A stretch of 47,971 bases of DNA from a virus. The stretch spans positions 1 to 47,971 of the IMG/VR virus record IMGVR_UViG_3300040806_000985. One strand, 5' to 3'. Both the position numbers and the translations under genes were made by a program. The notes under the pieces were generated by a model. It was not told the DNA's origin. It saw only the letters and a program-made list of their open reading frames with translations, and made no database searches. Of the stretch, positions 4,454 to 37,961 are shown in pieces (positions within the stretch are counted from its first letter, which is position 1; the number at the start of each line of letters is the position of its first letter).

Positions 4454-4482
4454 TTGACAAATATATATTTCTGTTATATACT
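4454..4482 (+). promoter_or_regulatory. Near-consensus sigma70-like promoter at the head of the cargo region
   Basis: TTGACA (4454-4459), exactly 17 bp, then TATACT (4477-4482). The predicted start is about 4489, giving a ~20-nt leader that carries GGAG before the ATG at 4509. The next visible plus-strand promoter is 10 kb downstream, so this one may drive the first ten tightly packed genes. Confidence 0.7.
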
Positions 4483-4508
4483 GTAACTACAGCTATATGG
4501 AGAAATAT

Positions 4509-4859
4509 ATGGACGAGCGTTTAGAAAAAGCACTAAACTTTTCTAATTACATGGTAACATTGTCAAATCAAAAGCGTATTTTAAATGAACAATTTATAGA
4601 AAATACGTTATATTATTATAATGGATGTCAGTTTACTGTAACTAAAGAATTAATAAATTTTGTAAATTTATTAAATGAAAACGACAATGACAATACAGTT
4701 TTAATAGATGATAATAATATACCTGTAAATATAGACAATATAAATTCTTTCTTAATTGATATACTTGATGTATACTTTTCTGCATCTAATACTTACCTAA
4801 CCGAGTATAACAAATTAAAATCTCAAAGATCAGTAGAAAAATTAGTAGATTATGACTAA
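4509..4859 (+). CDS. Small conserved-looking phage protein, unknown function
   Basis: A 116-residue acidic, Asn-rich protein without recognised domain. The ATG at 4509 is chosen over an in-frame ATG at 4497 because GGAG lies six bases before 4509 and because 4497 would leave almost no leader from the promoter. It is predicted mostly helical with no membrane segment or cysteine cluster apart from one Cys. It is first in the cargo transcription unit and overlaps the first glycosyltransferase by 8 nt (ATGACTAA), so the two are probably translationally coupled. Similar small proteins beside fibre genes occur in marine T4-like phages, from memory; function is not known. Confidence 0.65.
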   Translation: MDERLEKALNFSNYMVTLSNQKRILNEQFIENTLYYYNGCQFTVTKELINFVNLLNENDNDNTVLIDDNNIPVNIDNINSFLIDILDVYFSASNTYLTEYNKLKSQRSVEKLVDYD

Positions 4860-5694
4860 AGGTATATTATTATTTGCGAATAATAACGAAAAAGTAGATT
4901 ATGTAAAGCAAGCAGCGTTTGTTGCCAAAAGATGTAAAACTCATTTAGATCTTCCAGTATCTGTTGTGACAGATTCTGTAACTTATGCAGAATCTTTTGA
5001 AGTTTTTGATAATGTTATTAAATTAAATGAAGAAAATTTAAAATCAAATATTAAAACTTATTTTGACGGTTCTATATCTCAGTATCGACTTCCGTGGCGC
5101 AATAATTCTCGAACTTTGTCATATGAATTAAGTCCGTATGACGAAACAATTGTAATGGACACTGACATAATAATATGTAATGATAAATTAAAGGAAGCCT
5201 TTTCTAGCCTACAAGATTTTCAGATATATAAAGACTCTTTTGATTTGGCTGACTGGAGAGAGCAATCTGAGTTTAAGCATATAAGTGATGCTAGTGTTGA
5301 GTTTTACTGGGCAACTATATTTTTCTTTAGAAAAACTAAAAATAATGACATATTTTTTGATTTAGCTAAACATATCGAAAATAACTGGTGGCATTATAAA
5401 TCTTTGTATCAAGTACCGGCTCTATTTAGAAACGATTTTGTTTTCAGTATTGCTATTCACATAATGAATGGATTTCAAAAAGGAACGTTTGCAGCACCGT
5501 TACCTGGTAGACTATATCATATTTTAGATAGAGATGTTGTAATAAAATTAGATAACAATGAGATTACATTTTTAATACAAAAAGAAAATTATACTGGAGA
5601 ATATACACTTATTAAAACAAAAGATTTAACTATTCATGCTATGAATAAATTTAGTTTAGGTAGGGCTATTAATAAGGAGTTTGAAAATGACTAA
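4852..5694 (+). CDS. Glycosyltransferase-like protein (GT-A/GT8 type)
   Basis: A 280-residue protein with the N-terminal MTKGILLFA...YVKQA pattern and a DTD motif (MDTDIIICND, about residues 102-111) that fits the metal-binding DxD of GT-A-fold nucleotide-sugar transferases. It precedes that motif with SPYDETIV, shared exactly with the next gene, so the two are paralogues (about the same length). Nucleotide sugar and acceptor cannot be told. Its position between fibre genes and more sugar enzymes suggests glycan decoration of virion or host surface. It could have lost activity, but the DxD is intact. Confidence 0.65.
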   Translation: MTKGILLFANNNEKVDYVKQAAFVAKRCKTHLDLPVSVVTDSVTYAESFEVFDNVIKLNEENLKSNIKTYFDGSISQYRLPWRNNSRTLSYELSPYDETIVMDTDIIICNDKLKEAFSSLQDFQIYKDSFDLADWREQSEFKHISDASVEFYWATIFFFRKTKNNDIFFDLAKHIENNWWHYKSLYQVPALFRNDFVFSIAIHIMNGFQKGTFAAPLPGRLYHILDRDVVIKLDNNEITFLIQKENYTGEYTLIKTKDLTIHAMNKFSLGRAINKEFEND

Positions 5695-6526
5695 GGGCAT
5701 AGTAATGTTGGCACAGAATACAGATGAAACTAACTATGTCAAACAAGCATATTTAAATGCGTTAAGTATAATACATACTAATCCTGATACAAAAGTAAGC
5801 TTAATTACAAATGACTCTGTAGATAAAACCTATAAAAATATATTTGATAAAATAATTGACATTCCTTGGAACGATTCGGCTGTTAATGATAACTGGAAAG
5901 TTTCAAATCGTTGGAAGATTTATCATGCATCGCCATATGACGAAACTATTGTAATGGATACTGATATGATTGTACTACAAGATATTTCGTCATGGTGGAA
6001 AATTTTAAATAATTATGAATTGTATTTTGTAAAAAATGTAAAAACATATAGAGATGATTGTATACAAAATAGTTATTATAGAAAGACATTTCGATTAAAT
6101 GACTTACCTAATACCTATGTAGGATTTCATTATTTTAAAAAATGTGACACTGCAATGAATTTTTATAAGATGTTAGAAATAGTTTGTAATAACTACGAAG
6201 CATTTTATTTTAAATTTATATCAAAACATACTCCTAAATTTTTAAGTATAGATGTAGCAGCATCGTTGGTAATTAAAATTCTTAATATTGAAGACCAAGT
6301 AACAAATGATAGAATAAGTATACCTACATTTACACATATGAAAAATAATGTACAAGGTTGGAAGTCGATAGCAGATACCTGGCAAGACAGAATTGACTAT
6401 TTTATAAATGATGAGTTAGAACTTATTGTTGGAAATTATATACAGACTGGAGTATTTCATTATACTGAAAAAGATTTTTGTAACGATAAACTCATATCTC
6501 TTTATGAATCAAAGCGAGAAAATTAA
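5687..6526 (+). CDS. Glycosyltransferase-like protein (GT-A/GT8 type), paralogue
   Basis: The 279-residue product shares MTKGI, YVKQA, SPYDETIVMDTD with its upstream neighbour. MDTDMIVLQD supplies the DxD expected to bind the metal and nucleotide-sugar phosphate. A His-Trp rich C-terminal half could form the acceptor site. ATG at 5687 is preferred to TTG at 5681 because AAGGAG stands seven bases upstream of it. It overlaps the previous gene by 8 nt (ATGACTAA) and the next by 1 nt (TAATG). Known family members in marine phages are annotated as glycosyltransferases without a tested substrate. Confidence 0.68.
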   Translation: MTKGIVMLAQNTDETNYVKQAYLNALSIIHTNPDTKVSLITNDSVDKTYKNIFDKIIDIPWNDSAVNDNWKVSNRWKIYHASPYDETIVMDTDMIVLQDISSWWKILNNYELYFVKNVKTYRDDCIQNSYYRKTFRLNDLPNTYVGFHYFKKCDTAMNFYKMLEIVCNNYEAFYFKFISKHTPKFLSIDVAASLVIKILNIEDQVTNDRISIPTFTHMKNNVQGWKSIADTWQDRIDYFINDELELIVGNYIQTGVFHYTEKDFCNDKLISLYESKREN

Positions 6527-7362
6527 TGGATCTACTTAATCTTATAAAAAATACACAAGTTCCGAATAAAACTTTTGCATACTATAATACTAAATCAGGT
6601 GATGTATGGAAAGTTGGGCCTGACGATAATGATAAAAATACTTCCAAAGTAGAAATTAACGAGTTAGAAGAAAAACAAATTAAGTCAAAAGAAAAATCTC
6701 TAAATGATTTTTGTGTACAGTATAATAAAAAAAATAAATTGTATGAACTAATGAGTAAAGATTCTTCAGAAGACTTATTAAACTGGAATAATTTTAAAGA
6801 AGTTTTGTTTAAAAAACACGGTGATATTACAATTCAACAAATGGTTAAATCAAAACTATGGAAAATTACGATAGATTCAGAGTTTTATAATACTGTTATA
6901 TCAAAGAATATAGGCAATTCTAGAGTTTTCAAATGTAGTATAACAAAAAAACATGATCCTCGTAAATTAATAAGACTTTTAGAGTTTGACATTGTTCAAA
7001 CCATTAGAGACTATAACGACGAACATGTATACAAAGGTATTAAAGTAAAGGATAATAAAAAAGATTCAGTATACTGCCCTGGAGATCATGTATTTCATAA
7101 TAACAAAATTTATTGTTTAACTAATGAGTATTTAGATATTGATTTAGATAAGGTTGTAATTGATAGTGTATTTGCTAATAGAACATATGCACCTGTAGGT
7201 AGTTTATACATAAATGATAATATGATATGGTTAAATTTAGAGAAAAACGCAAAGAATGTTATAAACATTCCTTTCATATCTGACCAAGAATCTAACCTAG
7301 AACAATTAAGTATATATACAACAGTTGTTTATGATTGTAATAGAAAGGCACCCGATGAATAA
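6526..7362 (+). CDS. Protein of unknown function
   Basis: I do not recognise this 278-residue protein. It is Lys/Asp/Asn-rich, has a charged, probably helical N-terminal half and a more beta-rich C-terminal half containing YCPGDHVFH and a Val/Ile-rich run. There is no signal peptide, membrane segment or DxD motif. It is locked between glycosyltransferases by 1-nt (TAATG) and 8-nt (ATGAATAA) overlaps, so it is probably made with them and may serve the same pathway. Confidence 0.6.
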   Translation: MDLLNLIKNTQVPNKTFAYYNTKSGDVWKVGPDDNDKNTSKVEINELEEKQIKSKEKSLNDFCVQYNKKNKLYELMSKDSSEDLLNWNNFKEVLFKKHGDITIQQMVKSKLWKITIDSEFYNTVISKNIGNSRVFKCSITKKHDPRKLIRLLEFDIVQTIRDYNDEHVYKGIKVKDNKKDSVYCPGDHVFHNNKIYCLTNEYLDIDLDKVVIDSVFANRTYAPVGSLYINDNMIWLNLEKNAKNVINIPFISDQESNLEQLSIYTTVVYDCNRKAPDE

Positions 7363-8272
7363 CTTTAGAGTAGCAGATTGTGATATCATTTATTTGTCAT
7401 ATGATGAACCTAATGCTGAAAAAAACTATGCAGATTTGTGTTCAAAAGTGCCTTGGGCAAAACGTGTACACGGAGTTGAAGGTAGTGATGCCGCACACAA
7501 AGCATGTGCAAGATTGAGCGAAACAGATAGGTTTATTACAGTAGACGGTGACAATAAAATAGATAGTGCGTTTATAAATCAAGAAATACCGTTTGATCAA
7601 TTATCTAATTTAGAAAATAGTGTAATAAGTTGGTGCGGTAAAAATATAATTAACGGGTTAATGTACGGAAATGGCGGACTAAAGTGTTGGCCTAAAGATT
7701 ATGTTCTTAATATGCGTACTCACGAAAATGCTCCAGACGATAATCCACATGCACAAGTAGATTTTTGCTGGGATTTAAATTATATTCAACAAAATAGTTG
7801 TTTTTCAACTGTACATAATAATGCAACGCCGCAGCAAGCCTGGCGTGCTGGGTTCCGTGAAGGTGTTAAGATGACGCTGAACGAAGGTGTGCGTACTAGC
7901 AAATATGATTTAGTAAACGGACATTGGAAAAATTTACAACGTTTATATATTTGGTTAATGATAGGTGCTGATGCAGAATATGGTGACTGGGCAATACTTG
8001 GCGCCCGAGCAGGATTGTATATGACAATGTGTACAGACTGGGATTTTATAAATGTGAGAGATTTTGAATACTTAAATGATTTATGGAAAGTGTCTTTTGA
8101 ATCAATTGAAGATGTTAATTATGAAATAGAAGAATACGGAATTAAATTAATTAATGAACTAAACATTCCTATTGCAGAACAGCCGTTAAATGCACAACAA
8201 AGCAAATTCTTTAAATCAGTTTACCAAAATCCATCTAGAAATTCTAGAAAACTTATAGATATCGAAAAGTAA
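7355..8272 (+). CDS. Putative GT-A-like transferase (paralogue of the gene at 14504)
   Basis: Starts at ATG 7355 (AAGG six bases upstream), not at the in-frame ATG 7325 inside the previous gene. The 305-residue protein shares DIIYLSYDEPNAE, AKRVHGV.G...AH and a VDGD motif (about residues 63-66) with the gene at 14504 (DIVYISYKEINAE, VDAD). The VDGD/VDAD position fits a metal-binding DxD. An isolated YGNGG.K.WP motif follows in both. This family is frequent in marine T4-like phages and is usually unassigned; a nucleotide-sugar transferase is the best guess. The two paralogues bracket five radical SAM genes. Confidence 0.55.
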   Translation: MNNFRVADCDIIYLSYDEPNAEKNYADLCSKVPWAKRVHGVEGSDAAHKACARLSETDRFITVDGDNKIDSAFINQEIPFDQLSNLENSVISWCGKNIINGLMYGNGGLKCWPKDYVLNMRTHENAPDDNPHAQVDFCWDLNYIQQNSCFSTVHNNATPQQAWRAGFREGVKMTLNEGVRTSKYDLVNGHWKNLQRLYIWLMIGADAEYGDWAILGARAGLYMTMCTDWDFINVRDFEYLNDLWKVSFESIEDVNYEIEEYGIKLINELNIPIAEQPLNAQQSKFFKSVYQNPSRNSRKLIDIEK

Positions 8273-9561
8273 TGAGAAAATCAAAAACCTTTTGTGCTAT
8301 GCCATTTATTAGTACTATGCTTAACACTGATGGTAAAATGCGTTATTGCTGTATTGCCAGTGGTCCAACAGCCTTTGCACGTAATGCAGATGGATCACCT
8401 ATGATGGTTGGCAAAAACAGTGTAGAAGATGCATGGAACAGTGAAGTTTTTAAAAATGCTAGAAAAGATATGCTCAATGGTGTTCAAGTAGAAGCTTGTA
8501 AGCATTGTTACAAACAAGAAAGTATAGGCTTAGATAGCTTTAGAACTAGAATGACTGCTGAATGGCGTAATAGACTAGGTCTCGAACTGCACAACTTTAT
8601 TAATAGTGCAAAAGACAATAACTACGAAGTAAAATTACCACCTGTATATTTAGATCTTAGACTAGGAAACTTGTGTAATCTTAAGTGTCGTATGTGTAAT
8701 CCGTTTAATAGCAGTCAAATTGCTAAAGAACATTTTAGCTCATATGAAAAAAGTGAAGAATACAAAGAATTTTGGAACAACAACTGGGGCCAAAATCCTA
8801 CTTTCTTAAAAGATAGCGACTTAAATTTTGATAGTAACTTTTTATGGAATGAAATTATAGGGCTTATTCCAAATTTAAGTAAAGTTTATATGACCGGCGG
8901 CGAGCCTACTCTTATAAACAACAATTATAGATTTATGGAAGAAATAGTTGCAGCAGGATATCAAGATAAGATTGAAATATTTTTTAATATTAATTGCACA
9001 AATGTAACTGATAAATTTTTAAGTTTAATTAGTAAGTTTTCTAACATAAAAATCAATTGCAGTCTAGATGGCTATCAAAAAGTAAATGACTATATACGCT
9101 CGCCTAGTAAGTGGGAAAAAATTGATGAAAACTTTCAAAAGATTGCACAACTAAAAAATGTTAATTTAGATGTTTCGCCAGTTGTACAAACTTATAATGT
9201 TTTAGATTGTCATAATATGCTATATTATGTAGAATCTATTAGTGAAAAATACAACAGACCGATTGGCATTGACTATTTAATAAACGATCATCCGTTTTAC
9301 TTAGATGTAACAATACTACCGCAGCATATTAGAGAAAAGGCTGCACTTAATTTAGAGTCGTATCAAGGTAAATTATTAAATGAACCAAGAATTAAAACCA
9401 CAATTCAGGGTATTATTAATCTAATGCGTAAAGAACAGCATCAAGATCATGAAACACTAATGAAAAACTTTTTAAATTATACTCGTATGCTAGACAAGAC
9501 TAGAAACGAAAGTTTCAAAGATGCTATTCCTGAACTTGCAAAGGAATTAGGCATTGAATAA
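8272..9561 (+). CDS. Radical SAM enzyme with N-terminal twitch-like domain (1 of 7)
   Basis: 429 residues. The N-terminal domain carries Cys8, Cys26-Cys27, Cys76 and Cys79 (pattern C-x17-CC-x48-CxxCY), expected to hold an auxiliary iron-sulfur cluster. The radical SAM core begins near residue 128 with CNLKCRMC (Cys135, 139, 142) for the SAM-binding [4Fe-4S] cluster, and GGEP at 209-212 contacts SAM. Reaction and substrate are unknown; family members can modify peptides or small molecules by hydrogen abstraction. It starts at TAATG, overlapping the previous stop by 1 nt, and is the first of five tandem genes of this type. Confidence 0.85.
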   Translation: MRKSKTFCAMPFISTMLNTDGKMRYCCIASGPTAFARNADGSPMMVGKNSVEDAWNSEVFKNARKDMLNGVQVEACKHCYKQESIGLDSFRTRMTAEWRNRLGLELHNFINSAKDNNYEVKLPPVYLDLRLGNLCNLKCRMCNPFNSSQIAKEHFSSYEKSEEYKEFWNNNWGQNPTFLKDSDLNFDSNFLWNEIIGLIPNLSKVYMTGGEPTLINNNYRFMEEIVAAGYQDKIEIFFNINCTNVTDKFLSLISKFSNIKINCSLDGYQKVNDYIRSPSKWEKIDENFQKIAQLKNVNLDVSPVVQTYNVLDCHNMLYYVESISEKYNRPIGIDYLINDHPFYLDVTILPQHIREKAALNLESYQGKLLNEPRIKTTIQGIINLMRKEQHQDHETLMKNFLNYTRMLDKTRNESFKDAIPELAKELGIE

Positions 9562-16016: not shown

Positions 16017-16239
16017 ATTAAGTCTTAGAGAGTTACAAAAAGAAAGTGCAAGAGCACTTAGCACCATGCAGGCTACTAATAACAATATTCACCAGTTCAA
16101 TAAACAAGCACACCACAACAGTCAAAATTGGTATCGTGCTGTAATCGAATGGTATATTGAAAAATACGGAGACCTACCTAGTCGTGCAGGTCCAGGTAAA
16201 AATATAAGTTTAATTTTAGATGACACAGATTATATATAA
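16003..16239 (+). CDS. Small protein of unknown function
   Basis: 78 residues, beginning with TTG at 16003 behind a modest AAGG ten bases upstream. The sequence is well formed and soluble, with a helical N-terminal part (LRELQKESARAL), a Trp-containing middle (NWYRAVIEWYIEKYGDLPS) and a GPGKNISLILDD end. It has no cysteine and does not look like a RiPP precursor (no leader/core division). It overlaps the methyltransferase by 14 nt and the next gene by 20 nt. Could be a partner of one of them. Confidence 0.55.
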   Translation: MDISELSLRELQKESARALSTMQATNNNIHQFNKQAHHNSQNWYRAVIEWYIEKYGDLPSRAGPGKNISLILDDTDYI

Positions 16240-21808: not shown

Positions 21809-21810
21809 TT

Positions 21811-24077: not shown

Positions 24078-24084
24078 AATTCAC

Positions 24085-28300: not shown

Positions 28301-28339
28301 TATAAATATCTTGACAGAATGCTAAAATGGTGCTAATAT
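28301..28339 (+). promoter_or_regulatory. Combined late and sigma70-like promoter region
   Basis: TATAAATA at 28301-28308 (late-type, start near 28314) is followed at once by TTGACA (28311-28316), 17 bp, and TAATAT (28334-28339). The second promoter places its start on the ATG at 28346. The gene can therefore be read both by host sigma70-type polymerase and in the late programme. Confidence 0.65.
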
Positions 28340-28345
28340 AAAGAT

Positions 28346-29458
28346 ATGATTGAAGATTTAAAATGGAGCAACTACGACTTTACAAAGATCCCGTTTGACG
28401 ACATTGTTAGTGTTGGTCAGCGTACCCTGTTGTATCGTGATATATTTACTGTCAGCTGGCTCCTTGGAAGGTTCTGCAACTACAAATGCTCCTACTGTTG
28501 GCCTTATGCCCGCAGTGACCGTAAAGACCACCGTCCTACAGAACTATGCTTACGGACCATAGATGAAATAAAGAGGCAAGCACGTGAAAACGGATTTAAT
28601 AGTTATCATTTTAGTCTTAGTGGCGGCGAGCCTACTTTCCATCCTGGCTACTTGGATATTCTACAGCATTTGGCTGATGACGTAGACAACACCAACTATA
28701 CAAGTGTGCATATGACATCAAACTGTAGTCGCAACATGGCATGGTTTGAACAATATGTAGAAGCAGTTAAACCATTCCATCGTGCTAGTATAACAGCAAG
28801 TTTGCATACAGAACACTTAAATACAGTTGAGAAGATGCAAGACTTTGCAGACAAACTAATCTTCTGTCAGGAGCACGATGTTCAAGTTACAATCAATATG
28901 GTTATGGTTCCAGACTGGTTCGAAAGAGACTGGGAAAACGCCCTGTTCTTCCATGAGCAAGGAATCAATGTTACTCTTAAGCCGCAATCAGATCCTACTG
29001 CGAGCCGCGTGGTTGATGGTTACAAACCGGAGGACCTAAAGCGTTTACACAACGGTATGCCACAACGTGCATATACAGAAAGCAAACGCAAGTGGGAAGG
29101 AAGACCGAAGCCTAATTTTGAAATACCTTCCGGAGTTGACGGAAAGTTAGATACAAGTATACCATGGCACATGCAAGTAGAATTTAAAGATAAGTACGGC
29201 AAGAAATGGTTTATGGATCAAGCAGAACGCTTTAATGCGTTTAACTTCAACAAGTTCAAAGGTTGGAACTGCAATGCTGGATATCAAGGTATCATCATAC
29301 GTGAACCAGATGGTAGTGTAAAGCGCAGTTATAGTTGCCACGATGTGCCTTTAGGGAACATTGAAACAGGATTCAAATTGTTTAATAAACCCATGCCGTG
29401 TATGACTGATAGTTGTGTAAGTTCGGCAGATTCTAAAATTCCAAAAAGTAAATATTAA
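28346..29458 (+). CDS. Radical SAM enzyme, third family (2 of 2), with unusually high GC
   Basis: 370 residues. CNYKCSYC at Cys44/48/51, SGGEP near residue 93. C-terminal FKGWNC, SCHD, PCMTDSC give possible auxiliary-cluster ligands and link it to the gene at 25475. Its codon use is visibly richer in C and G (many gcc, ctg, ccg codons) than the neighbouring cargo genes, and it stands behind its own promoter pair, suggesting a separate origin. The reading frame continues into the 2OG block by a TAATG overlap. Confidence 0.83.
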   Translation: MIEDLKWSNYDFTKIPFDDIVSVGQRTLLYRDIFTVSWLLGRFCNYKCSYCWPYARSDRKDHRPTELCLRTIDEIKRQARENGFNSYHFSLSGGEPTFHPGYLDILQHLADDVDNTNYTSVHMTSNCSRNMAWFEQYVEAVKPFHRASITASLHTEHLNTVEKMQDFADKLIFCQEHDVQVTINMVMVPDWFERDWENALFFHEQGINVTLKPQSDPTASRVVDGYKPEDLKRLHNGMPQRAYTESKRKWEGRPKPNFEIPSGVDGKLDTSIPWHMQVEFKDKYGKKWFMDQAERFNAFNFNKFKGWNCNAGYQGIIIREPDGSVKRSYSCHDVPLGNIETGFKLFNKPMPCMTDSCVSSADSKIPKSKY

Positions 29459-30156: not shown

Positions 30157-30157
30157 T

Positions 30158-30724
30158 TTGATATTTTTATATGGATATATTGCATACTGGATTGTAGCTT
30201 TAATAGGTATTACCTATGGATATCATAGATACTTTTCACATAAGTCTTATAATGCAAGTCCAATGGTTGAAATTTGGTTACTATATATAGGTTTATTATG
30301 CGGTGGACGTAGCGCACTTACATGGTCGGGTGTGCATCGTATGCATCATGCATATGCTGATACACCTAAAGATCCACATAGTGTAAAGAATCATCCTTGG
30401 TATGTAATATTGTTCAGTCTGTGGAGTGTAGATAGTATACCACGAAAGTTTCTCATAGACTTGATACGTAATCCTAGAGTTATGTTCTTCCACAAATACG
30501 GAACATATATTTTTATTACACATTGGGTTATTTCTTTCTTGACTTTTGGATTAGATGCTGTTATAATTAATGCAATGCTAGTAGTGTTATCCTATCTTGG
30601 ATTTGGTATATTGAACCTGTTTGGACATGATTTAGAAGGTCCTATAAACAATTTTTGGATTAACCTAATAGCACCGTTAGAAGGTAATCATAAAGACCAT
30701 CATGAATATTCACAAAGAACTTGA
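30158..30724 (+). CDS. Membrane fatty-acid desaturase
   Basis: 188 residues, TTG start at 30158 preceded by an AGG. Three histidine boxes HRYFSH, HRMHH and HKDHH, plus NLFGH, match the di-iron ligands of acyl-CoA/acyl-lipid delta-9 desaturases. Hydrophobic segments near residues 1-18, 35-50 and 125-155 fit membrane spans. It is shorter than bacterial family members (about 250-320) but keeps the ligands. It would introduce a double bond into a host acyl chain, altering membrane fluidity or supplying a lipid for a surface molecule. Overlaps the next gene by 23 nt. Confidence 0.82.
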   Translation: MIFLYGYIAYWIVALIGITYGYHRYFSHKSYNASPMVEIWLLYIGLLCGGRSALTWSGVHRMHHAYADTPKDPHSVKNHPWYVILFSLWSVDSIPRKFLIDLIRNPRVMFFHKYGTYIFITHWVISFLTFGLDAVIINAMLVVLSYLGFGILNLFGHDLEGPINNFWINLIAPLEGNHKDHHEYSQRT

Positions 30725-31679
30725 TATAGATTTAAAAAAATGCACAGATGAACAGATTAAGAATGTAGCAAAATTAACTGCATATCATTCTAATGTATTG
30801 TTACGTAATCAAGAACTTACAAAAGACGACTATGCTAGAATACTTGCTCTATGGGGAGATAAGACACAGCATCATGCTTGGTATGAAGATCCTGATTATC
30901 ACCAAATACAATATGTAACAAACCGTGCTATGCCCGAATTAGGAGGCAAGCGTGGGATATTTCCACAAGGCGAACTTGAATGGCATTGTAACGGCACACT
31001 TGCACTTGATCCAGAAGACTGTGTAACATTGTATTGTGTTGTTCCTACAAAGGATAGATGCGATACTATATTCTTAAACGGCGTTGAAGCATACAACGAC
31101 TTGCCCAATCATGTAAAGAAAACAATTGACAATACTATGCTAATGATTACAAGTGATGTAAGAAGTTTTCATAGAAGCGACTTTGAACATTTAATTACAC
31201 GTACCGAACAGCCTCGTATACTTAATGACAACAGAGCATATACTATAAGCGAAGATCAAGTTACTGCGGATGAAGCAAAAGATCTACACAACATACAAGG
31301 ACGTAAGCGTAGTAATGGTCCTATCTATCAAGAGATGATGCGTAGGAAACAAGAATTTAGCGTAGAAGGTCGATGGAAGTATACCTACAAAAAACTAGTT
31401 CATGAGCATACAGTAACAGGGCAAAAAGGATTATATTTTCCTTTCTTAAATGTAGCAGGACTACATGATATTCCAAAAGATGAACAAAAAGAATTATACG
31501 ACTATCTAGTTAAACATTACTTAACGTATGAATATAGTCACGATTGGAAAACTGGAGATTTGATGTTGTTTGATCAAACACAAGCACTACACAAGCGTCA
31601 GCCCTTTCCTGAAGTCGACGGTGAACAGCAAGATAGACTGTTGTGGCGAGGAGCATTTTACTATGACGGTGTACAGTAG
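30702..31679 (+). CDS. TauD-like protein with altered iron site (2OG oxygenase 2 of 10)
   Basis: 325 residues, TauD/TfdA-type layout: LEWHCNGT around residue 95 aligns with the WHTD of TauD, then DTIFLNGVEAYNDLP matches the D....G..AY..L block, and a distal His297 with R in the C-terminal region. The usual aspartate of the iron triad is Asn97 (HCN). Two His ligands remain. This could be an inactive relative or one with a different chemistry. It overlaps the desaturase by 23 nt. Confidence 0.65.
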   Translation: MNIHKELDIDLKKCTDEQIKNVAKLTAYHSNVLLRNQELTKDDYARILALWGDKTQHHAWYEDPDYHQIQYVTNRAMPELGGKRGIFPQGELEWHCNGTLALDPEDCVTLYCVVPTKDRCDTIFLNGVEAYNDLPNHVKKTIDNTMLMITSDVRSFHRSDFEHLITRTEQPRILNDNRAYTISEDQVTADEAKDLHNIQGRKRSNGPIYQEMMRRKQEFSVEGRWKYTYKKLVHEHTVTGQKGLYFPFLNVAGLHDIPKDEQKELYDYLVKHYLTYEYSHDWKTGDLMLFDQTQALHKRQPFPEVDGEQQDRLLWRGAFYYDGVQ

Positions 31680-32902: not shown

Positions 32903-33436
32903 ATGATGAAATCTCCTAAAAAAAACATGGCAGGCGTTATTAGTTTTTATCCTAGCGAACGTCCTGACCTAATAGAACAACTAAACAACCTACAGTTTAA
33001 TGACAATGATCCTTTAAACACAAATTATAAAAATATTGATTGGCATGAGTTTCAAGTTATTAGTGTTTATGAAAACGATGGCATTGTACAAGGATTTAGT
33101 GTAGCATGGCACAGACCAGAATACTATGCAGAAAATGAAGTAAGGATTCTATCACGCTACTGGAAAGATACTAGCATTAGATTAACATGTACACATACTG
33201 AACTAAGTATGCCGCACTTGATTGATATGATTACACATCAAATGACCATGTGTAAAGAATTAGGATTTACTAGTGCATTTATAAGCCGAGAAAAAAGTCC
33301 AAGATACTTTCGCAAGCTAATTACTAGTATACAAGAAAAAACAAGCACACAATGGCATTTATATGATGATAGACAATGTGTGTGCATACCAGAAGCGCCG
33401 AGTTGTTGGCAATATAAAGCGAGTACCGAACTATGA
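32903..33436 (+). CDS. Unknown protein, possibly GNAT-fold
   Basis: 177 residues. The sequence has strands such as FQVISVYENDGIVQGFSVAW followed by Tyr-Arg segments and a helix, arranged like a GNAT acyltransferase beta sheet, but the acetyl-CoA loop (R/Q-x-x-G-x-G/A) is not clear. It also has an unexplained Cys pair in CVCIP near the end. Call is tentative; the gene is clearly real, filling the space between a sulfotransferase and an oxygenase. Confidence 0.5.
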   Translation: MMKSPKKNMAGVISFYPSERPDLIEQLNNLQFNDNDPLNTNYKNIDWHEFQVISVYENDGIVQGFSVAWHRPEYYAENEVRILSRYWKDTSIRLTCTHTELSMPHLIDMITHQMTMCKELGFTSAFISREKSPRYFRKLITSIQEKTSTQWHLYDDRQCVCIPEAPSCWQYKASTEL

Positions 33437-34098
33437 AACGTAGAGAAGAACTTCCATTTTTTAAAAAATTACCTTATACATTTGATGTAGACCGCATTTT
33501 AAAAGATTTTAATTTAATTAAAGATAAAAATGATGATCTAACCATTGAAGGCGGTTACGGAGACTTAGTAGGTAGTAAAGCACCCAAGTTAGAAAATGCG
33601 TTTAGTATTGGCAAGTATACAGAGTATGTAGATGGAATGGTTAAAGGTGATTATACACAAGTTGGTATGACACAGTATAATCCAGATGCTGTAAACAGAG
33701 AATACAATATTAAAATCAGCAATAAACGCCCAGACGAACGTCATTATAATTCACTACGTCCTGAACTTGAAGGCAGTTATATACAAGAAGTTATGAATAC
33801 ATTTCGTGGAGAAGCAACTAGAACACGCATTGCTATTCTAAAACCAGGTGCTGCTATCAAACCACACATTGACTATAACACTGATTATAGTGTGAGATAT
33901 CATATACCTCTTAAAACAAATGATCTTTGTGGGTTTGATAATGTAGACAAGGCAGGTAACAGAGAAGAAATACACATGGGGTTAGGCGAGTGCTGGTTTT
34001 TAAATCAAGGATTCAGACACAGTGCCTGGAACAACGGTGATACTGAAAGATGGCATTTGATTGTTAGTGTGCTAACACAGGAAGATCTTAATGATTAA
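33433..34098 (+). CDS. AspH-type oxygenase (4 of 10)
   Basis: 221 residues. RIAILKPGAAIKPHIDYNTDY carries HxD, and LNQGFRHSAWNNGDTERWHLIVSV carries the distal His and the Arg for 2OG. This is the clearest AspH-like pattern of the block. The N-terminal 100 residues are family-specific. ATGA overlap with the previous gene. Substrate unknown. Confidence 0.7.
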   Translation: MKRREELPFFKKLPYTFDVDRILKDFNLIKDKNDDLTIEGGYGDLVGSKAPKLENAFSIGKYTEYVDGMVKGDYTQVGMTQYNPDAVNREYNIKISNKRPDERHYNSLRPELEGSYIQEVMNTFRGEATRTRIAILKPGAAIKPHIDYNTDYSVRYHIPLKTNDLCGFDNVDKAGNREEIHMGLGECWFLNQGFRHSAWNNGDTERWHLIVSVLTQEDLND

Positions 34099-34600
34099 AA
34101 ATAAAATAAAAAATAGTTTTATAACCACTGACTATCGTATAGATCCGGCATTCTGGAAAACATATATGACCGGCGAATGGCAAGACAGTAATAAATTATA
34201 TTCAGAATATGTAAGTGATGCAACTGGCGGCAAAGAAATGAATAAGTTCTTTGTACAAGAAATTCATAACTTTGATAGACCTTTACTAAAATTAATCAAA
34301 AGTCTTTGGAATGAGTTTGGTATTCGTCCGCGAGATTTTAGATGTAACTTCTTTAGAGTGTTAGAAGGCGGCAATCTTCCTGTACATGTAGATGTCAAAA
34401 GTGAATGTAGTTTTCTTATTCCTGTAACAAAAAACACAGGTGCATTATATGTAGAAGAACAAGGCACTGAAAGTATTGTGTATGATACACTTACAGTGCT
34501 TAACACAAAACTACCACACGGTGTAGAAGCACCAGCACAAGAACGTATAGTGTTTCATATGGGAATACACGATATAAAATTTGGAGAATTAAATGTATAG
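34091..34600 (+). CDS. Fe(II)/2OG oxygenase-like (5 of 10)
   Basis: 169 residues. NLPVHVDVKSECSF (HxD) and LPHGVEAPAQERIVFHMG (distal His and Arg) fit a compact AspH-like jelly-roll. AGGAAGATCTTA precedes the ATG, which overlaps the previous stop (ATGATTAA). Confidence 0.65.
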   Translation: MIKNKIKNSFITTDYRIDPAFWKTYMTGEWQDSNKLYSEYVSDATGGKEMNKFFVQEIHNFDRPLLKLIKSLWNEFGIRPRDFRCNFFRVLEGGNLPVHVDVKSECSFLIPVTKNTGALYVEEQGTESIVYDTLTVLNTKLPHGVEAPAQERIVFHMGIHDIKFGELNV

Positions 34601-35123
34601 GTTAGATAAACAATACGATATAAAAAAAATTAAATCTGAATATCACGAGCTTGTAAAAAAAGTAGGCTGGACGCCAGGGTTACCAGATCACTTTGATGCA
34701 ATTACTTTGCAAACTGATGGTACTGAAGATTACCATTTACATTATGAAATTGATAAATTCTATATCCGACACTGGGACGATAATGATGTAAAAGAATGGA
34801 CTGAACAAAATGAATCTTTCAAACAGTTATTAATTCCACCAGAATGGGAAATGTCAAAATTTATAATTGAAAATAATTTAACAAGAACAAGAATATTACG
34901 AATAGCACCTCGATTTGTTTATAATACTCATAAAGACTGGACAGATAGATGTCAATTAGGAATTATTACAAATGAGTATTGTTATTATATAGAAGAAGGT
35001 GTTGCGTATAATATACCAGATGATGGCTACGGTTATGTTACTGAAACAACAAAAATGCACAGTGCAGCAAATGCTAGCACAGAATACAGAGTAAATTTAG
35101 CAGGATGTATAAATGTGGCATAA
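34593..35123 (+). CDS. AspH-type oxygenase (6 of 10)
   Basis: 176 residues. RILRIAPRFVYNTHKDWTDR gives HxD and TKMHSAANASTEYRVNLAG gives the distal His and Arg. The spacing resembles the genes at 33433 and 31663. Overlaps the previous stop (ATGTATAG). Confidence 0.62.
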   Translation: MYRLDKQYDIKKIKSEYHELVKKVGWTPGLPDHFDAITLQTDGTEDYHLHYEIDKFYIRHWDDNDVKEWTEQNESFKQLLIPPEWEMSKFIIENNLTRTRILRIAPRFVYNTHKDWTDRCQLGIITNEYCYYIEEGVAYNIPDDGYGYVTETTKMHSAANASTEYRVNLAGCINVA

Positions 35124-35919
35124 AGAATATAATGTAGATATTAAAAAAATGTCTAACGAAGAACTAAAACAAGTTGCAAGAGACATTAACAAACATTTAG
35201 TTGTAGTATTTAGGAATCAAAGTCTTACACCTGAAGATGAACTTAGAATTGCTAGTGTAATGGGCAATGTAAAAGCAAATACAGGTGAAAGCACAAGTTC
35301 TAAGGATAATTTAAGTCTTGTTCCAGGCGTGCTAAGAGTCACTGGAGAACTTAATGATAAAGGTGTGCCGGGTCTATTCGGGCACGAAATAGAATTAGAT
35401 TGGCATACGCACCATCCTACAGAAAAAAATAGATGGCCTTTTGTTTGGTTATATAGCGAACGTGGTAGTAAAGGAAGTAGAACTAGCTGGATCAATCAAG
35501 TTTTTGCTTACAATGATCTGCCAGAAGATATAAAACAAAAGGTAAATGGTATAACTGTTGCTTGCGGACATAAAGTAGGTAATTTTAGTCCAAGTGAAAT
35601 ATTTCAAAATAATGTTGTTTATAATAATCCACAAAAAATTGTAAGAACAAATATTGAGAATCTCACAGGATTATACTTTCCTTTTCTACAAATATTTGAT
35701 GTAATTAATGGTGCTACTAAAGAGGAATGGCCTGATTTATTTGAATATCTTAAAAATCATATCTTACAAGAGAAATATATAATGCATCATGATTGGGAAG
35801 ATGGCGATCTTGTTATAAGCGAACAGTGGTTAAGCATACATAAACGCTGGACATTTGCAGATATGAAAACGAGAGTATTACATAGAATAGCATTAGATTA
35901 TGAACACAGTTACGTATAG
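35113..35919 (+). CDS. TauD-like protein with altered iron site (7 of 10)
   Basis: 268 residues. LDWHTHHP near residues 97-100 aligns to TauD WHTD, with His100 in place of the metal-ligand Asp. A block SRTSWINQVFAYNDLP and a distal His243 (SIHKRW) with a C-terminal HRIALDYE follow. It is a paralogue of the gene at 30702 (same N-terminal IDLKK.T.EQ / VDIKKMSNEELKQVA start) but the ligand change differs (His versus Asn). An inactive or reprogrammed enzyme is possible. Confidence 0.64.
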   Translation: MWHKEYNVDIKKMSNEELKQVARDINKHLVVVFRNQSLTPEDELRIASVMGNVKANTGESTSSKDNLSLVPGVLRVTGELNDKGVPGLFGHEIELDWHTHHPTEKNRWPFVWLYSERGSKGSRTSWINQVFAYNDLPEDIKQKVNGITVACGHKVGNFSPSEIFQNNVVYNNPQKIVRTNIENLTGLYFPFLQIFDVINGATKEEWPDLFEYLKNHILQEKYIMHHDWEDGDLVISEQWLSIHKRWTFADMKTRVLHRIALDYEHSYV

Positions 35920-36382
35920 CAAACTAAATTTACCTAGGTTAGATTTACCAAAAATATGGCATACAAATGATGTACAACTGAAAGCAAAAGTTGGAGGGTA
36001 TATTGCGTATTATGTGACTGACGAAGTTGATAAACAAATAAGGAGCTTATTTCCGAAAGAGTTTTTTCCTAAAAAAACTCATATAATTGCACAGTTTATT
36101 GATCCTCAATTAAACGGACTTATACATATGGATAGGCGTGAGTTTGCTATTAACTATGTGCTTAATAAAGGTGGCTTAGACGCTCATACAAGCGTTTACA
36201 GCAGTGATAGTGTGCTAGAGAGTACATATACGCAACAGGAGCAAGAATGGTACTTGTTAAATACATATAAGAACCATGCAGTACATAATATAACAGATAC
36301 ACGAGTTGCAATTAGTATAAGTTTTTATGAATTTGGAGACACACAATGGAGGTTTATAAATGAAAAATATGAAAGCAAATAA
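35900..36382 (+). CDS. Fe(II)/2OG oxygenase-like (8 of 10)
   Basis: 160 residues. LIHMDRREFAINYVL (HxD) and LNTYKNHAVHNITDTRVAISISF (His and Arg) fit a minimal cupin-type oxygenase; the first 50 residues are unremarkable. Overlaps its upstream neighbour by 20 nt. Confidence 0.6.
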   Translation: MNTVTYSKLNLPRLDLPKIWHTNDVQLKAKVGGYIAYYVTDEVDKQIRSLFPKEFFPKKTHIIAQFIDPQLNGLIHMDRREFAINYVLNKGGLDAHTSVYSSDSVLESTYTQQEQEWYLLNTYKNHAVHNITDTRVAISISFYEFGDTQWRFINEKYESK

Positions 36383-37250
36383 ACCATTTGATGATGAAAC
36401 ACTAAAGAACATGGATATTATACATGATCCTAACACTAAGTTCTTTAAGGATCAATACGAGCCTAGTTACAGCATAGATAACTTTATTACAGAACAAGAA
36501 CGTGTACAGTTGCTTGACTTTTGGTATAAAGAGTACAACAATGTTGGCTGGGAAATAAATGGACATATTGTAAACATTCCGCACCCTATACGCTACAGCG
36601 TAATAAATGATATTTTACGGTCTAAAGTATATGAACACTTTGGAGAAGATACTATATTTTATAGCGAAGTTTCGAATGATCCTATAAGTGTTGGTGATCA
36701 GATGTTTAAAAGTATTAGACCTTATGGATTACATACAGACAGTGTTACACATATTCCCGGCTATCGTCCTTATAAAGACATTATTTTACCATTAGAAATA
36801 CATAATAATGTATCAATAGATTATGTAACTTTTAATCAACGTTATCGCGGAAGAGCTACACATTTTATGAAAAATAGACATATTTCTAATTTTAGCGGTT
36901 ATAGTAATACCTTTAGATTATTACCATATGAGCAGTACGGAGTTGAAGGTATAGAATACAATAAACTAGACTGGGCATGGATGGAACGTGAAATGCCTGA
37001 ACACATACCTATGAGTATATACGAAGGATTAAGTATAGAAGAAGTGTTGCCCTGGAAATTGTGTAGTGGCATTGTACAAGATACAAGTGTATTACACGCA
37101 CCGACAGATTTTAGAAAAAAAGGTTGTGAATGGAAAATAGCAATAACATTTCATTTAATGAAAAAGGATGAAACTTATAATAATGCTATAGAAGGATATC
37201 CTACATCTTTTAGCAGATATACTCTTAATCCGCCTTTACTGGAGAAATAA
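36360..37250 (+). CDS. Fe(II)/2OG oxygenase-like (9 of 10)
   Basis: 296 residues. GLHTDSVTH (HxD) and VLHAPTDFRKKGCEWKIAITFHL (distal His; Arg or Lys near) fit the fold. The insert between them is about 130 residues, much longer than in the sisters. GGAGG seven bases upstream of the 36360 ATG decides the start over an in-frame ATG at 36369. Confidence 0.6.
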   Translation: MKNMKANKPFDDETLKNMDIIHDPNTKFFKDQYEPSYSIDNFITEQERVQLLDFWYKEYNNVGWEINGHIVNIPHPIRYSVINDILRSKVYEHFGEDTIFYSEVSNDPISVGDQMFKSIRPYGLHTDSVTHIPGYRPYKDIILPLEIHNNVSIDYVTFNQRYRGRATHFMKNRHISNFSGYSNTFRLLPYEQYGVEGIEYNKLDWAWMEREMPEHIPMSIYEGLSIEEVLPWKLCSGIVQDTSVLHAPTDFRKKGCEWKIAITFHLMKKDETYNNAIEGYPTSFSRYTLNPPLLEK

Positions 37251-37961
37251 ATGGAAGATAGATTTAAAAAATATATTAGGCACAATTTTATAGGTGGACA
37301 TGAAAACGATCCTAAAATGTTTGTTCCTACTGACGAACAAATTCATTGCGAACAGCAACTAGCAATGTTAGGTGATTATGCTAAGTTAAACTTTAGTTTA
37401 GATATAGATAAATTTAATAGTGAGTTAGAACCATATAACGATAAATGGGTTGATTATCTTCCTAGAAAAGGCGAATACGATCCTAGATACGGGTTAATGT
37501 TATGGGGACTAGAAGGTGATGACTGTAATGATAGTTTAAGTTTGCCAGAAGCTAGAAAACGTATAGGCCACAAAGTAATGGAAGCGGATTTTAATTATCC
37601 TACTCAGTTATACAAAGATCTTACTAGTATCCATGATTTATGTGATTATTTTTCTCCACTAGGAAGAACATTTTTAGTTAAAGCAGACGCAGGAGCATAT
37701 TTTCCACCACATAGAGATCATCAATATTTAACTAGAGATTGTTTTAGAGTGTGTGCATTCTTTGATAATACAGGTGACGAAGCATTCGAATGGGAACAAA
37801 ACGGAAGAAGATTGCCGATTACTCCTGGAAATGTAATTTACATTGACACAACTAAAGTACATCGCACTCACTCTTGGGCAAATGGAAGTATTCATTTAAT
37901 AATGAATATTCCAAAAACTTGGGATAATGTAATAAAATTAATAAGTGTTCTAGGTGTTTAG
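37251..37961 (+). CDS. AspH-type oxygenase (10 of 10)
   Basis: 236 residues. VKADAGAYFPPHRDHQYLT gives HxD, and VHRTHSWANGSIHLIMN gives distal His; the 2OG partner residue is probably a Ser/His rather than Arg. It has a long N-terminal part. It is the last plus-strand gene and overlaps by 4 nt the stop of the converging tail-fibre gene. Confidence 0.6.
   Translation: MEDRFKKYIRHNFIGGHENDPKMFVPTDEQIHCEQQLAMLGDYAKLNFSLDIDKFNSELEPYNDKWVDYLPRKGEYDPRYGLMLWGLEGDDCNDSLSLPEARKRIGHKVMEADFNYPTQLYKDLTSIHDLCDYFSPLGRTFLVKADAGAYFPPHRDHQYLTRDCFRVCAFFDNTGDEAFEWEQNGRRLPITPGNVIYIDTTKVHRTHSWANGSIHLIMNIPKTWDNVIKLISVLGV

What the first reader, a model, noticed from the sequence alone, without database searches (positions are those of the whole stretch)
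4454..37961. 33-kb phage island of radical SAM and 2OG enzymes between tail-fibre genes
Seen: 12 radical SAM genes, 10 2OG-oxygenase-like genes, glycosyltransferases, sulfotransferase, methyltransferase, desaturase, SGNH hydrolase, a UDP-sugar-dehydrogenase-like protein and a nitroreductase, nearly all on one strand and overlapping by a few nt, with fibre genes on both sides. Known: these families modify sugars, lipids and peptides. Inference: a modification island that decorates a virion or host-surface molecule. This number in one phage region is unusual as far as I know.
Basis: partly seen in the sequence, partly recalled or inferred. Interest (0 to 1): 0.92.

Follow-up and report, generated by a model that had tools for sequence, protein, structure and literature searches.

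The report
Phage fibre-slot radical-SAM sugar-tailoring island
Between the fibre genes of an uncultivated phage lies a swappable block of enzyme genes, sharing a conserved core with many uncultivated relatives, that most likely builds an unusual sugar decoration, probably for the phage's own fibres, though this has not been shown by experiment.

Summary
The observation largely holds. The island (about 4497-37961) has 37 plus-strand genes and one minus-strand gene, with 12 radical SAM (rSAM) genes, all with CxxxCxxC. Of ten "2OG" genes, four pass a Pfam cut-off, one just misses, five rest on motif only. The count is not unusual: 20 of 50 IMG/VR records examined carry at least 10 rSAM matches (maximum 23), and a 12-rSAM phage was published in 2017.

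New here is a conserved core threading the island: GT-A-fold glycosyltransferase, class I methyltransferase fold, rSAM/SPASM, N-twitch rSAM, and another rSAM before or after. Methyltransferase > rSAM > N-twitch rSAM occurs in 37 of 80 related loci; the full reverse in none. One core rSAM is 95% identical in a phage whose MoxR is 88%, so cassettes are probably exchanged. The island fills a variable slot of a jumbo-phage-like lineage. A virion-protein gene precedes the first GT-like genes in 7 of 7 loci with upstream sequence. One of 38 island proteins has membrane segments.

Most likely: a cytosolic glycan-tailoring pathway decorating virion fibres; host-surface modification is the main rival. 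No substrate was shown.

Side finding: phage proteins ending in CHxSCHxSCHxxRxRR, often beside rSAM maturases.

The parts
726..2246 (+). Left-flank virion (fibre-like) protein with Peptidase_G2-like C-terminus
   Evidence: Pfam PF11962 25.2 bits against 25; homolog in PA5oct annotated virion structural, ESI-MS/MS
2257..3180 (+). Virion protein, fibre-like; its family directly precedes the first GT-like unit
   Evidence: PA5oct homolog, 23% identical, E 4e-5, annotated ESI-MS/MS; family and synteny
3246..4442 (+). Paralog of the 2257 virion protein
   Evidence: profile search
4454..4482 (+). sigma70-type promoter-like site, 11 of 12 (TTGACA-17-TATACT), start of the island
   Evidence: 11 of 12 also before the L009 homolog but only 8 of 12 before those of L040 and L036; total number of sites in the region is not above shuffles
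4497..4859 (+). Small conserved gene between virion protein and GT-like genes
   Evidence: synteny
4852..5694 (+). GT8-like glycosyltransferase (by eye, DxD)
   Evidence: no Pfam or PHROG hit; similar ORF in 9 of 80 loci
5681..6526 (+). GT8-like glycosyltransferase (by eye, DxD)
   Evidence: PHROG of unknown function only; 10 of 80 loci
6526..7362 (+). Unknown protein
   Evidence: no hit
7325..8272 (+). GT-A-like glycosyltransferase, paralog of 14504
   Evidence: aligned with 14504, invariant DxD
8272..9561 (+). N-twitch rSAM
   Evidence: NF033640 357 bits
9554..10675 (+). N-twitch rSAM
   Evidence: NF033640 229 bits
10668..11927 (+). N-twitch rSAM
   Evidence: NF033640 389 bits
11851..13260 (+). 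N-twitch rSAM
   Evidence: NF033640 312 bits
13257..14483 (+). N-twitch rSAM
   Evidence: NF033640 304 bits
14470..14498 (+). perfect sigma70-type promoter-like site (12 of 12) before the core cassette
   Evidence: of 52 homologs of 14504 only 2 reach 11 or more (both 12 of 12)
14504..15187 (+). CORE: GT-A-fold glycosyltransferase
   Evidence: model pLDDT 93.3; 37 Foldseek hits E<=0.001, TM 0.31-0.43; best VIA Z 11.5
15141..16016 (+). CORE: class I SAM methyltransferase fold
   Evidence: model pLDDT 94.1, NodS Z 16.4
16220..17365 (+). glycosyltransferase-like (by eye)
   Evidence: no useful profile hit
17362..18483 (+). UDP-sugar dehydrogenase-like
   Evidence: PF03721 68.9 and PF00984 61.0 bits
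18422..18916 (+). unknown
   Evidence: no hit
18901..19650 (+). DUF6473 / SGNH-like, weak
   Evidence: 22.3 bits against cut-off 27
19651..20730 (+). CORE: rSAM with C-terminal SPASM-like cysteines (by eye)
   Evidence: 33.6 bits; order conserved
20750..21808 (+). rSAM
   Evidence: 25.1 bits, below cut-off 29.5; CxxxCxxC
21793..22782 (+). PP-loop ATPase, QueC-like C-terminus
   Evidence: phrog_1550 E 2e-5; TilS_N and ATP_bind_3 weak
22752..24077 (+). divergent N-twitch rSAM
   Evidence: NF033640 144.6 bits, below cut-off
24061..25485 (+). CORE: N-twitch rSAM
   Evidence: NF033640 422 bits; 93% identical in L032
25475..26704 (+). rSAM
   Evidence: 44.0 bits
26704..27654 (+). rSAM/SPASM
   Evidence: 46.2 and 24.8 bits
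27655..28269 (-). nitroreductase-like, weak
   Evidence: PHROG E 0.045; homologs 50-54% in 3 loci
28311..28339 (+). sigma70-type promoter-like site, 10 of 12, before 28346
   Evidence: at least 11 of 12 at 7 of 20 homologs
28346..29458 (+). CORE: rSAM
   Evidence: 55.1 bits; 92% identical in L037, 95% in L172
29458..30156 (+). 2OG-like, motif only
   Evidence: HxD; no profile or useful PDB hit
30158..30724 (+). fatty-acid-desaturase-like
   Evidence: 29.6 bits against 29.7; the only island protein with hydrophobic segments
30702..31679 (+). TauD-family 2OG oxygenase
   Evidence: 106.1 bits
31570..32238 (+). Asp/Asn hydroxylase family
   Evidence: 57.0 bits
32189..32902 (+). sulfotransferase
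   Evidence: PF03567 36.5 bits
32903..33436 (+). unknown (GNAT-like by eye)
   Evidence: no hit
33433..34098 (+). Asp/Asn hydroxylase family
   Evidence: 61.3 bits
34091..34600 (+). 2OG-like, motif only
   Evidence: HxD; no profile hit
34593..35123 (+). Asp/Asn hydroxylase family, marginal
   Evidence: 22.5 bits against 22.6
35113..35919 (+). TauD-family 2OG oxygenase
   Evidence: 90.2 bits
35900..36382 (+). 2OG-like, motif only
   Evidence: HxD; no profile hit
36360..37250 (+). 2OG-like, motif only
   Evidence: HxD; no profile or useful PDB hit
37251..37961 (+). 2OG/cupin-like, motif only
   Evidence: Cupin_2 18.4 bits against 27.2
37958..39244 (-). right-flank fibre protein (Mtd N-terminal domain)
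   Evidence: 40.6 bits
39299..47796 (-). conserved phage block (40780 HNH-endonuclease PHROG, VWA/peptidase-like by eye; MoxR-type ATPase 42160; exonuclease 44941; QueE-like 46822) that fixes the slot
   Evidence: PHROGs; 32 of 32 MoxR-anchored loci with at least 5.5 kb downstream keep 40780 to 39299

Best explanation
The island is a cytosolic glycan-tailoring pathway in a variable slot between fibre genes of a jumbo-phage-like lineage. SHOWN by sequence or model: a conserved core of GT-A-fold glycosyltransferase, class I methyltransferase fold, rSAM/SPASM, N-twitch rSAM and a further rSAM; accessory rSAM, NDP-sugar dehydrogenase, sulfotransferase and 2OG-oxygenase genes that vary between phages; and virion-protein genes next to its GT-like unit wherever that unit was seen with upstream sequence. 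INFERRED: nucleotide sugars from the host are oxidised (17362), transferred (14504, 7325, 4852, 5681), methylated (15141), rebuilt at unactivated carbons by the rSAM enzymes, then hydroxylated or sulfated; the product is attached to virion fibre proteins made in the same cytosol (the 2257/726 proteins upstream, the Mtd_N fibre downstream). Decoration would change adsorption specificity or shield the fibre, and recombination would exchange decorations between phages. Promoter-like sites at unit starts resemble those in front of the MoxR and exonuclease genes, so the enzymes are probably made before or during virion assembly.
For: Core order methyltransferase > rSAM > N-twitch rSAM in 37 of 80 loci, full reverse 0 of 80; with the GT first in 22 of 80. 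GT-A fold with a DxD invariant in 35 sequences; methyltransferase fold. Virion protein, small gene, GT-like 4852 in 7 of 7 loci with upstream sequence, 2 more loci having none; 6 of the 7 have a detected 4497 homolog. PA5oct homologs of 726 and 2257 are annotated as detected by ESI-MS/MS. Same slot in 32 of 32 MoxR-anchored loci with at least 5.5 kb downstream. Island gene 28346 is 95% identical in L172 where MoxR is 88%. One of 38 island proteins has hydrophobic segments. Neighbour ORFs of cellular relatives include GT2 (4 of 73), carbamoyltransferase (2 of 73) and Aminotran_5 (3 of 73). At least 11-of-12 promoters at 28346 homologs in 7 of 20 against 0.02 expected.
Against: No substrate, product or activity was shown. 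rSAM/SPASM enzymes more often modify peptides than sugars (recalled), and beyond NF033640 the NCBIfam models nearest to the island rSAMs are mostly peptide or metallocofactor maturases, all far below their cut-offs. The related cultivated phages Phosso and Atu_ph07 have, in the same slot, rSAMs beside a protein with a Cys-His tail, which points to peptide chemistry there. The GT8-like calls and half the 2OG calls rest on motif or eye; the GT-A fold hits have TM-scores of 0.43 at most and nucleotidyltransferases tie in Z. The 80 loci were found through an N-twitch rSAM, so rSAM co-occurrence is partly by selection. The pair 15141 > 19651 is reversed in 8 of 80. Only 4 of 73 cellular neighbours are GT2. 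The fibre-GT link was seen in 7 loci only; many core cassettes lie in stretches without a detected fibre gene. Only 2 of 52 homologs of 14504 have the strong promoter.
Confidence: 0.42

Rival explanations
1. The island alters the host cell surface (lipopolysaccharide or capsule sugars) during infection to keep out competing phages, as proposed for pelagimyophage glycosyltransferases.
For: Same kind of place and gene types in pelagimyophage host-recognition clusters, where the authors favour this reading (PMC7029224, passages and section 6 read). sigma70-type promoters like those before the MoxR and exonuclease genes suggest early expression. Some cellular N-twitch rSAMs lie near surface-glycan-type genes.
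Against: No flippase, polymerase or membrane GT: 1 of 38 island proteins has hydrophobic segments, the desaturase (a simple hydropathy scan). Coupling to a virion-protein gene in 7 of 7 loci.
Confidence: 0.27
2. The rSAM enzymes modify a protein or peptide (RiPP-like), for example fibre tips by cross-links or epimerisation, and the GT and 2OG genes are further protein-modifying steps.
For: SPASM/twitch architecture; Asp/Asn hydroxylase-family oxygenases; cultivated jumbo phages have rSAM maturases beside proteins ending in CHxSCHxSCHxxRxRR, in Phosso and Atu_ph07 in the same slot, after a homolog of 726.
Against: No plausible gene with such a tail in the window or in the other loci then held: 138 further ORF ends matched C-x3-C-x3-C, none convincing in my judgement. 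The island is 97% coding, with two plus-strand gaps over 30 nt, one of them filled by the minus-strand gene. The tailed proteins are not related to the 2257 family by profile comparison (probability 3%). The conserved core holds a GT-A fold and a class I methyltransferase fold.
Confidence: 0.2
3. The island makes a diffusible or intracellular small molecule, or modifies nucleotides/DNA, and lies between fibre genes only because that slot tolerates insertions.
For: QueC-like PP-loop protein 21793 and a QueE-like protein outside the island; the slot holds other genes in other phages.
Against: QueC similarity covers only the C-terminal part (E 2e-5); the coupling to the virion gene. Links to DNA modification were not searched for.
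Confidence: 0.11

Closest known systems
Host recognition cluster (HRC) of pelagimyophages and cyanomyophages (PMC7029224)
   Same: Large hypervariable block among tail-fibre genes with glycosyltransferases and, in some genomes, rSAM cassettes
   Different: Those are T4-like phages of 132-164 kb; here the flanking MoxR gene is nearest PA5oct-like jumbo phages (52%), and rSAM and 2OG-like genes, not GTs, dominate; a conserved GT-methyltransferase-rSAM core is not described in the parts I read
TARA_ERS488813_N000010, T4-like phage with 12 rSAM genes (PMC5332604, section 14)
   Same: Same number of rSAM genes in one uncultivated marine phage genome
   Different: The paper treats them under Fe-S cluster metabolism; order, slot and core are not described in that section
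NCBIfam NF033640 N_Twi_rSAM
   Same: 6 of 7 N-twitch genes pass the cut-off
   Different: A name for an architecture; no function is known to me
RiPP gene clusters with rSAM/SPASM maturases
   Same: Multiple rSAM with auxiliary Fe-S domains plus oxygenases
   Different: No precursor peptide found in the window; GT-A and methyltransferase folds in the core
O-antigen conversion (gtr) clusters of seroconverting phages (recalled)
   Same: Phage-borne glycan modification
   Different: gtr systems need membrane proteins (recalled); the island has almost none

Membership tests
NF033640 N_Twi_rSAM | score at or above the 170-bit cut-off | tested here: met
   6 of 7 (24061, 10668, 8272, 11851, 13257, 9554); 22752 has 144.6 bits and is not a member by this test
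NF033640 N_Twi_rSAM | N-terminal Fe-S cysteines followed by rSAM CxxxCxxC | tested here: met
   C8, C26, C27, C76, C79 and CxxxCxxC invariant in 7 of 7
Radical SAM superfamily PF04055 | CxxxCxxC and significant profile match | tested here: met
   12 of 12 motif; all 12 E<=0.002, 9 of 12 over the gathering score
Pelagimyophage/cyanomyophage host recognition cluster | variable block with tail fibres and glycan genes | tested here: met
   fibre genes on both sides and variable content
Pelagimyophage/cyanomyophage host recognition cluster | location between VrlC and gp14 in a T4-like genome | tested here: inconclusive
   none of the 14 flank proteins scanned was named VrlC or gp14, 6 flank ORFs were not scanned; MoxR gene nearest PA5oct-like phages; the record is a fragment
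RiPP cluster | precursor peptide with a core next to the maturase | tested here: inconclusive
   no plausible gene with C-x3-C-x3-C in the last 28 residues; other core types were not tested
O-antigen conversion (gtr-type) cluster | membrane-bound flippase/glycosyltransferase | tested here: not met
   1 of 38 island proteins has hydrophobic segments, the desaturase
2OG-Fe(II) oxygenases | profile match above cut-off with HxD...H | tested here: inconclusive
   4 of 10 above Pfam cut-off (30702, 31570, 33433, 35113), 34593 just below, 5 motif only (PDB search made for 3 of the 5)
GT-A glycosyltransferases | GT-A fold and DxD | tested here: met
   14504 model: 49 of the 50 Foldseek rows shown are glycosyltransferases by title, HddC the exception; DxD invariant in 35 sequences; nucleotidyltransferases tie in VIA Z; activity not testable
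DNA hypermodification systems | modified-base enzymes with phage nucleotide genes | not tested
   no dedicated search made

The most novel reading that the evidence does not exclude
The slot after the 726-type virion gene in jumbo-type phages is a dedicated virion-modification locus built on radical chemistry. In the uncultivated branch a conserved GT-methyltransferase-rSAM core plus exchangeable rSAM/2OG cassettes puts a hypermodified sugar on the fibres, a kind of exchangeable phage serotype; in the cultivated relatives Phosso and Atu_ph07 the same slot holds rSAM maturases acting on the CHxSCHxSCHxSRSRR tail of a virion-associated protein. Radical SAM enzymes would then be a general means by which large phages finish their virions.
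Probability: 0.25. Interest if true: 0.87.

Novelty: new variant of a known kind. Interest (0 to 1): 0.62.

Why it matters
So a widespread piece of phage biochemistry has hardly been within reach of experiment. If it decorates virions, it would give phages a class of surface chemistry built by radical enzymes and could help explain variable host range. The occurrence of rSAM genes in the matching slot of a cultivated Sinorhizobium phage (Phosso) makes the idea that this slot modifies virions testable now.

Tried and rejected
Idea that the count of 12 is exceptional: rejected (PMC5332604). Control by a non-rSAM gene: records picked through MoxR (22 of 80 loci given, those on contigs of about 20 kb or more) have 0-22 rSAM matches, none in 7 of 22; of 8 records over 60 kb, 7 have at least 7, but 2 of the 8 (G023, G043) also came in through rSAM, leaving 5 of 6. 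For one search I gave 50 of 80 loci, mostly those on longer contigs.

Diversity-generating retroelement (suggested by Mtd_N): the repeat search (repeats of 30 nt or more) found no template/variable pair, only a 48-nt family inside three rSAM paralogs; weak test, no reverse transcriptase search made.

Precursor peptide in the window: none plausible. Homology of the CHxS proteins to the 2257 fibre family: not found. Near-identical DNA of the island (4852-28300 given) in cultivated phages: none. 24061 on plasmids: none. Host: not found; phage-like contigs in MAGs of five unrelated taxa (L089-L093) are best read as binning noise (inference); no tRNA in the window. Habitat of the window's record: not looked up. 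PDB sequence searches for 37251, 29458 and 36360 gave chance hits only (34091 and 35900 were not sent), and for the 14504 and 15141 profiles nothing useful. Promoter and terminator counts in the island as a whole do not exceed shuffles; only positions before some unit starts do (letters shuffled singly); with automatic starts the signal was weaker. IspD/MobA-type nucleotidyltransferases appear in the VIA list for 14504 at Z tied with GTs, so fold alone does not settle a glycosyltransferase; the Foldseek list and DxD favour it. Motif literature search was useless because the strings occur in German words. Where I call the core or the CHxS tail new to me, this rests on searches of one open-access library only.

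Full report
WHAT THE WINDOW IS. The window is a whole IMG/VR record of 47,971 bases, probably a fragment of a larger genome. Its minus-strand block (MoxR-type ATPase 42160, 40780, exonuclease 44941, QueE-like 46822) is nearest to PA5oct-like jumbo phages of about 286 kb (MoxR 52% identical), and so are the virion genes 726 and 2257. It is best read as part of a large phage. Host and habitat were not established.

CHECK OF THE OBSERVATION. All 12 rSAM genes are real by profile and have CxxxCxxC; by hmmscan 9 of 12 exceed the Pfam gathering score (9554, 11851 and 20750 do not). Seven have the twitch/SPASM-like half at the N-terminus, the reverse of the usual order (recalled); 6 of 7 pass NF033640's cut-off, and none of 14 control genomes does. 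All seven keep C8, C26, C27, C76, C79 and the rSAM cysteines. Of the ten 2OG-like genes, TauD 30702 and 35113 and Asp_Arg_Hydrox 31570 and 33433 are over the cut-off, 34593 is a tenth of a bit under, and the other five have only an HxD...H pattern. 37 genes lie on the plus strand, one on the minus strand; 28 of 36 plus-strand junctions overlap.

IS THE NUMBER UNUSUAL? No. Among 50 records taken from the best 80, 20 have at least 10 PF04055 matches and 12 at least 12, maximum 23; the window has 11 by the same search. Records chosen by the MoxR gene, not by rSAM, range from 0 to 22, with none in 7 of 22. A T4-like marine phage with 12 rSAM genes is in print (PMC5332604, section 14 read), and rSAM cassettes in a fibre-bearing variable cluster are in print for pelagimyophages (PMC7029224, section 6 and passages read). 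In cultivated phages, by contrast, 8272 finds 2 of 50,697 records at 24% identity, and 28346 and 14504 find none.

A CONSERVED CORE. Mapping window proteins on the 80 loci shows a recurring cassette in the order 14504, 15141, 19651, 24061, with 28346 before or after it. The order 15141 > 19651 > 24061 on one strand within 8 kb is present in 37 of 80 loci, the full reverse in 0; the pair 15141 > 19651 in 39, reversed in 8. With 14504 in front (within 16 kb) the order holds in 22 of 80; with 28346 in front in 16, with 14504 in front and 28346 last in 8. 43 of 80 loci hold at least 4 of the 5 families. The loci were found through an N-twitch rSAM, so presence of 24061-like genes is partly by selection, but the order and the non-rSAM partners are not. 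The models are of high confidence: 14504 pLDDT 93.3, 37 Foldseek hits at E<=0.001, 49 of the 50 rows shown glycosyltransferases by title, TM-scores 0.31-0.43, and a DxD invariant in 35 sequences (the VIA list also has nucleotidyltransferases at tied Z); 15141 pLDDT 94.1, class I methyltransferase over residues 78-291, best NodS, Z 16.4, rmsd 2.6 over 168 residues. Fold does not prove activity.

THE SLOT. In 32 of 32 MoxR-anchored loci with at least 5.5 kb downstream, the block from 40780 to 39299 is kept. What follows varies or shows no similarity to window genes: nitroreductase-like, 2OG and 28346 (L169, L172); desaturase and TauD (L182, L183); fibre genes (L186, L192, L195). 28346 is 95% identical in L172 and 87% in L169, where MoxR is 88% and 89%; in L172 the block gene next to the variable part (39299) is 35%. 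This is what recombination of cassettes between phages would leave. On the other side, a virion-protein gene of the 2257 family precedes a small gene and then GT-like 4852 in 7 of 7 loci with upstream sequence (6 IMG/VR loci and one phage-like contig in a MAG, L116); in 6 the small gene is a detected 4497 homolog, in L013 a small gene without detected similarity stands there; two more loci (L014, L083) lack the upstream sequence. In PA5oct the homologs of 726 and 2257 stand side by side, are annotated as seen by ESI-MS/MS, and have no island. Only the desaturase among 38 island proteins has hydrophobic segments, so nothing in the island looks made to move a glycan across a membrane.

CELLULAR RELATIVES. 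A scan of bacterial genomes found, besides phage-like contigs in MAGs, neighbouring N-twitch genes on contigs of Bdellovibrionota and single genes in Hahella, Beijerinckia, Poseidonocella and others; in L094-L101 the pair matches 8272 and 10668 at 35-49% (L096 is an unnamed bacterium; L102 is weaker). Of 73 neighbour ORFs picked by position, 10 have rSAM (some of them further N-twitch genes), 4 GT2, 3 aminotransferase class V (cysteine desulfurase-like by eye), 3 patatin and 2 carbamoyltransferase domains. That hints at glycan or natural-product tailoring but is thin.

EXPRESSION. Near-consensus sigma70 sites (at least 11 of 12) lie before 28346 homologs in 7 of 20, MoxR 27 of 83 and exonuclease 41 of 58, each against 0.02-0.22 expected from shuffled upstream sequences, and before none in 20 of the 26 genes listed. 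The window has 11 of 12 before 4497, 12 of 12 before 14504 and 10 of 12 before 28346. For 14504 homologs only 2 of 52 reach 11, and of three 4497 homologs one does, so this is clear for 28346 and only suggestive for the other two. I infer three transcription units and early-type expression; whether they are expressed together was not tested.

IRON-SULFUR SUPPLY AND HYDROXYLASES. Of 29 large records 10 carry an A-type Fe-S carrier and 24 an Asp_Arg_Hydrox match, against 0 of 14 control genomes for the latter. The presence of rSAM and Asp/Asn-hydroxylase-family genes in one record is thus common in this group.

MECHANISM. Shown: gene content, core, folds, slot and signs of exchange. Inferred: that sugars are the substrate (GT-A fold, methyltransferase fold, NDP-sugar dehydrogenase, sulfotransferase) and that fibres are the acceptor (linkage to virion genes, lack of membrane steps). 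I give 0.42 to this reading, 0.27 to host-surface modification, 0.20 to protein or peptide modification and 0.11 to small molecules or nucleotides.

A LEAD FROM CULTIVATED RELATIVES. In phage Phosso the gene after the 726 homolog starts a row of a cupin/2OG-like gene, rSAM genes and a 306-aa protein ending in CHTSCHASCHSSRSRR. Atu_ph07 has the same set behind its own 726 homolog (22% identical, E 4e-24), with three small opposite-strand genes between; SURPRISE13 and DT01 have it behind structural genes that are not related to 726. The four tailed proteins are diverse (46, 21 and 24% identical to the Phosso one), yet 11 of 19 invariant columns lie in the last 16 residues. The loci are not all independent: one is Atu_ph07-sized and the 98 proteins fall into 78 clusters at 90% identity; counted by cluster, 36 of 45 single-copy clusters have the upstream rSAM. 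The rSAM of DT01 is nearest to sulfatase and peptide (cyclophane, ranthipeptide) maturases, far below cut-offs; the tail matches phrog_35144, function unknown, in 4 of 5 proteins tested. This is a separate system, not found in the window or in the other loci held when I looked, but it shows that rSAM genes in this kind of slot can accompany a probable protein substrate.

VERDICT. A real, conserved and apparently exchangeable biosynthetic island; new variant of the known fibre-adjacent variable cluster; the count alone is not remarkable; substrate unknown.

Noticed in passing
L248:12679-13599, L250:9119-10009, L251:7060-7620, L252:7025-7561; L253-L332: Phage proteins ending exactly in CHxSCHxSCHxxRxRR, with an rSAM/SPASM ORF directly upstream in 44 of 56 single-copy loci (36 of 45 clusters at 90% identity); 77 of 80 IMG/VR loci have the motif at the very C-terminus. 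Possibly a RiPP-like modification of a virion-associated protein; phrog_35144, function unknown.
   Followed up: partly
L253, L264, L270, L285, L299 and other loci: Tandem pairs of mostly about 125-145-aa proteins with the same CHxS tail and no rSAM directly upstream (21 loci); the partner enzyme, if any, lies elsewhere.
   Followed up: no
L094-L102: Bdellovibrionota contigs (L096: unnamed bacterium) carry neighbouring N-twitch rSAMs matching window genes 8272 and 10668, with GT2, patatin, carbamoyltransferase and aminotransferase class V genes nearby in some.
   Followed up: partly
L114:2043-16818: Elusimicrobia contig with tandem long ORFs that join TPR repeats to N-twitch rSAM similarity.
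   Followed up: no
L249:3198-14166: Vibrio phage K566, cultivated, has four N-twitch-like rSAM genes interleaved with GT-like genes (GT by eye).
   Followed up: partly
window 46822-47796 and 21793-22782: QueE-like protein without CxxxCxxC outside the island and a QueC-like PP-loop protein inside it; a link to 7-deazaguanine chemistry was not tested.
   Followed up: no
window 14470-14498; L068, L037, L048, L027, L172: Perfect sigma70-type promoter-like sites whose -10 box ends 5-7 nt before the start codon, which would give almost leaderless mRNAs.
   Followed up: partly
G007, G024, G034, G042 and others: A-type Fe-S carrier genes in 10 of 29 large phage records.
   Followed up: no
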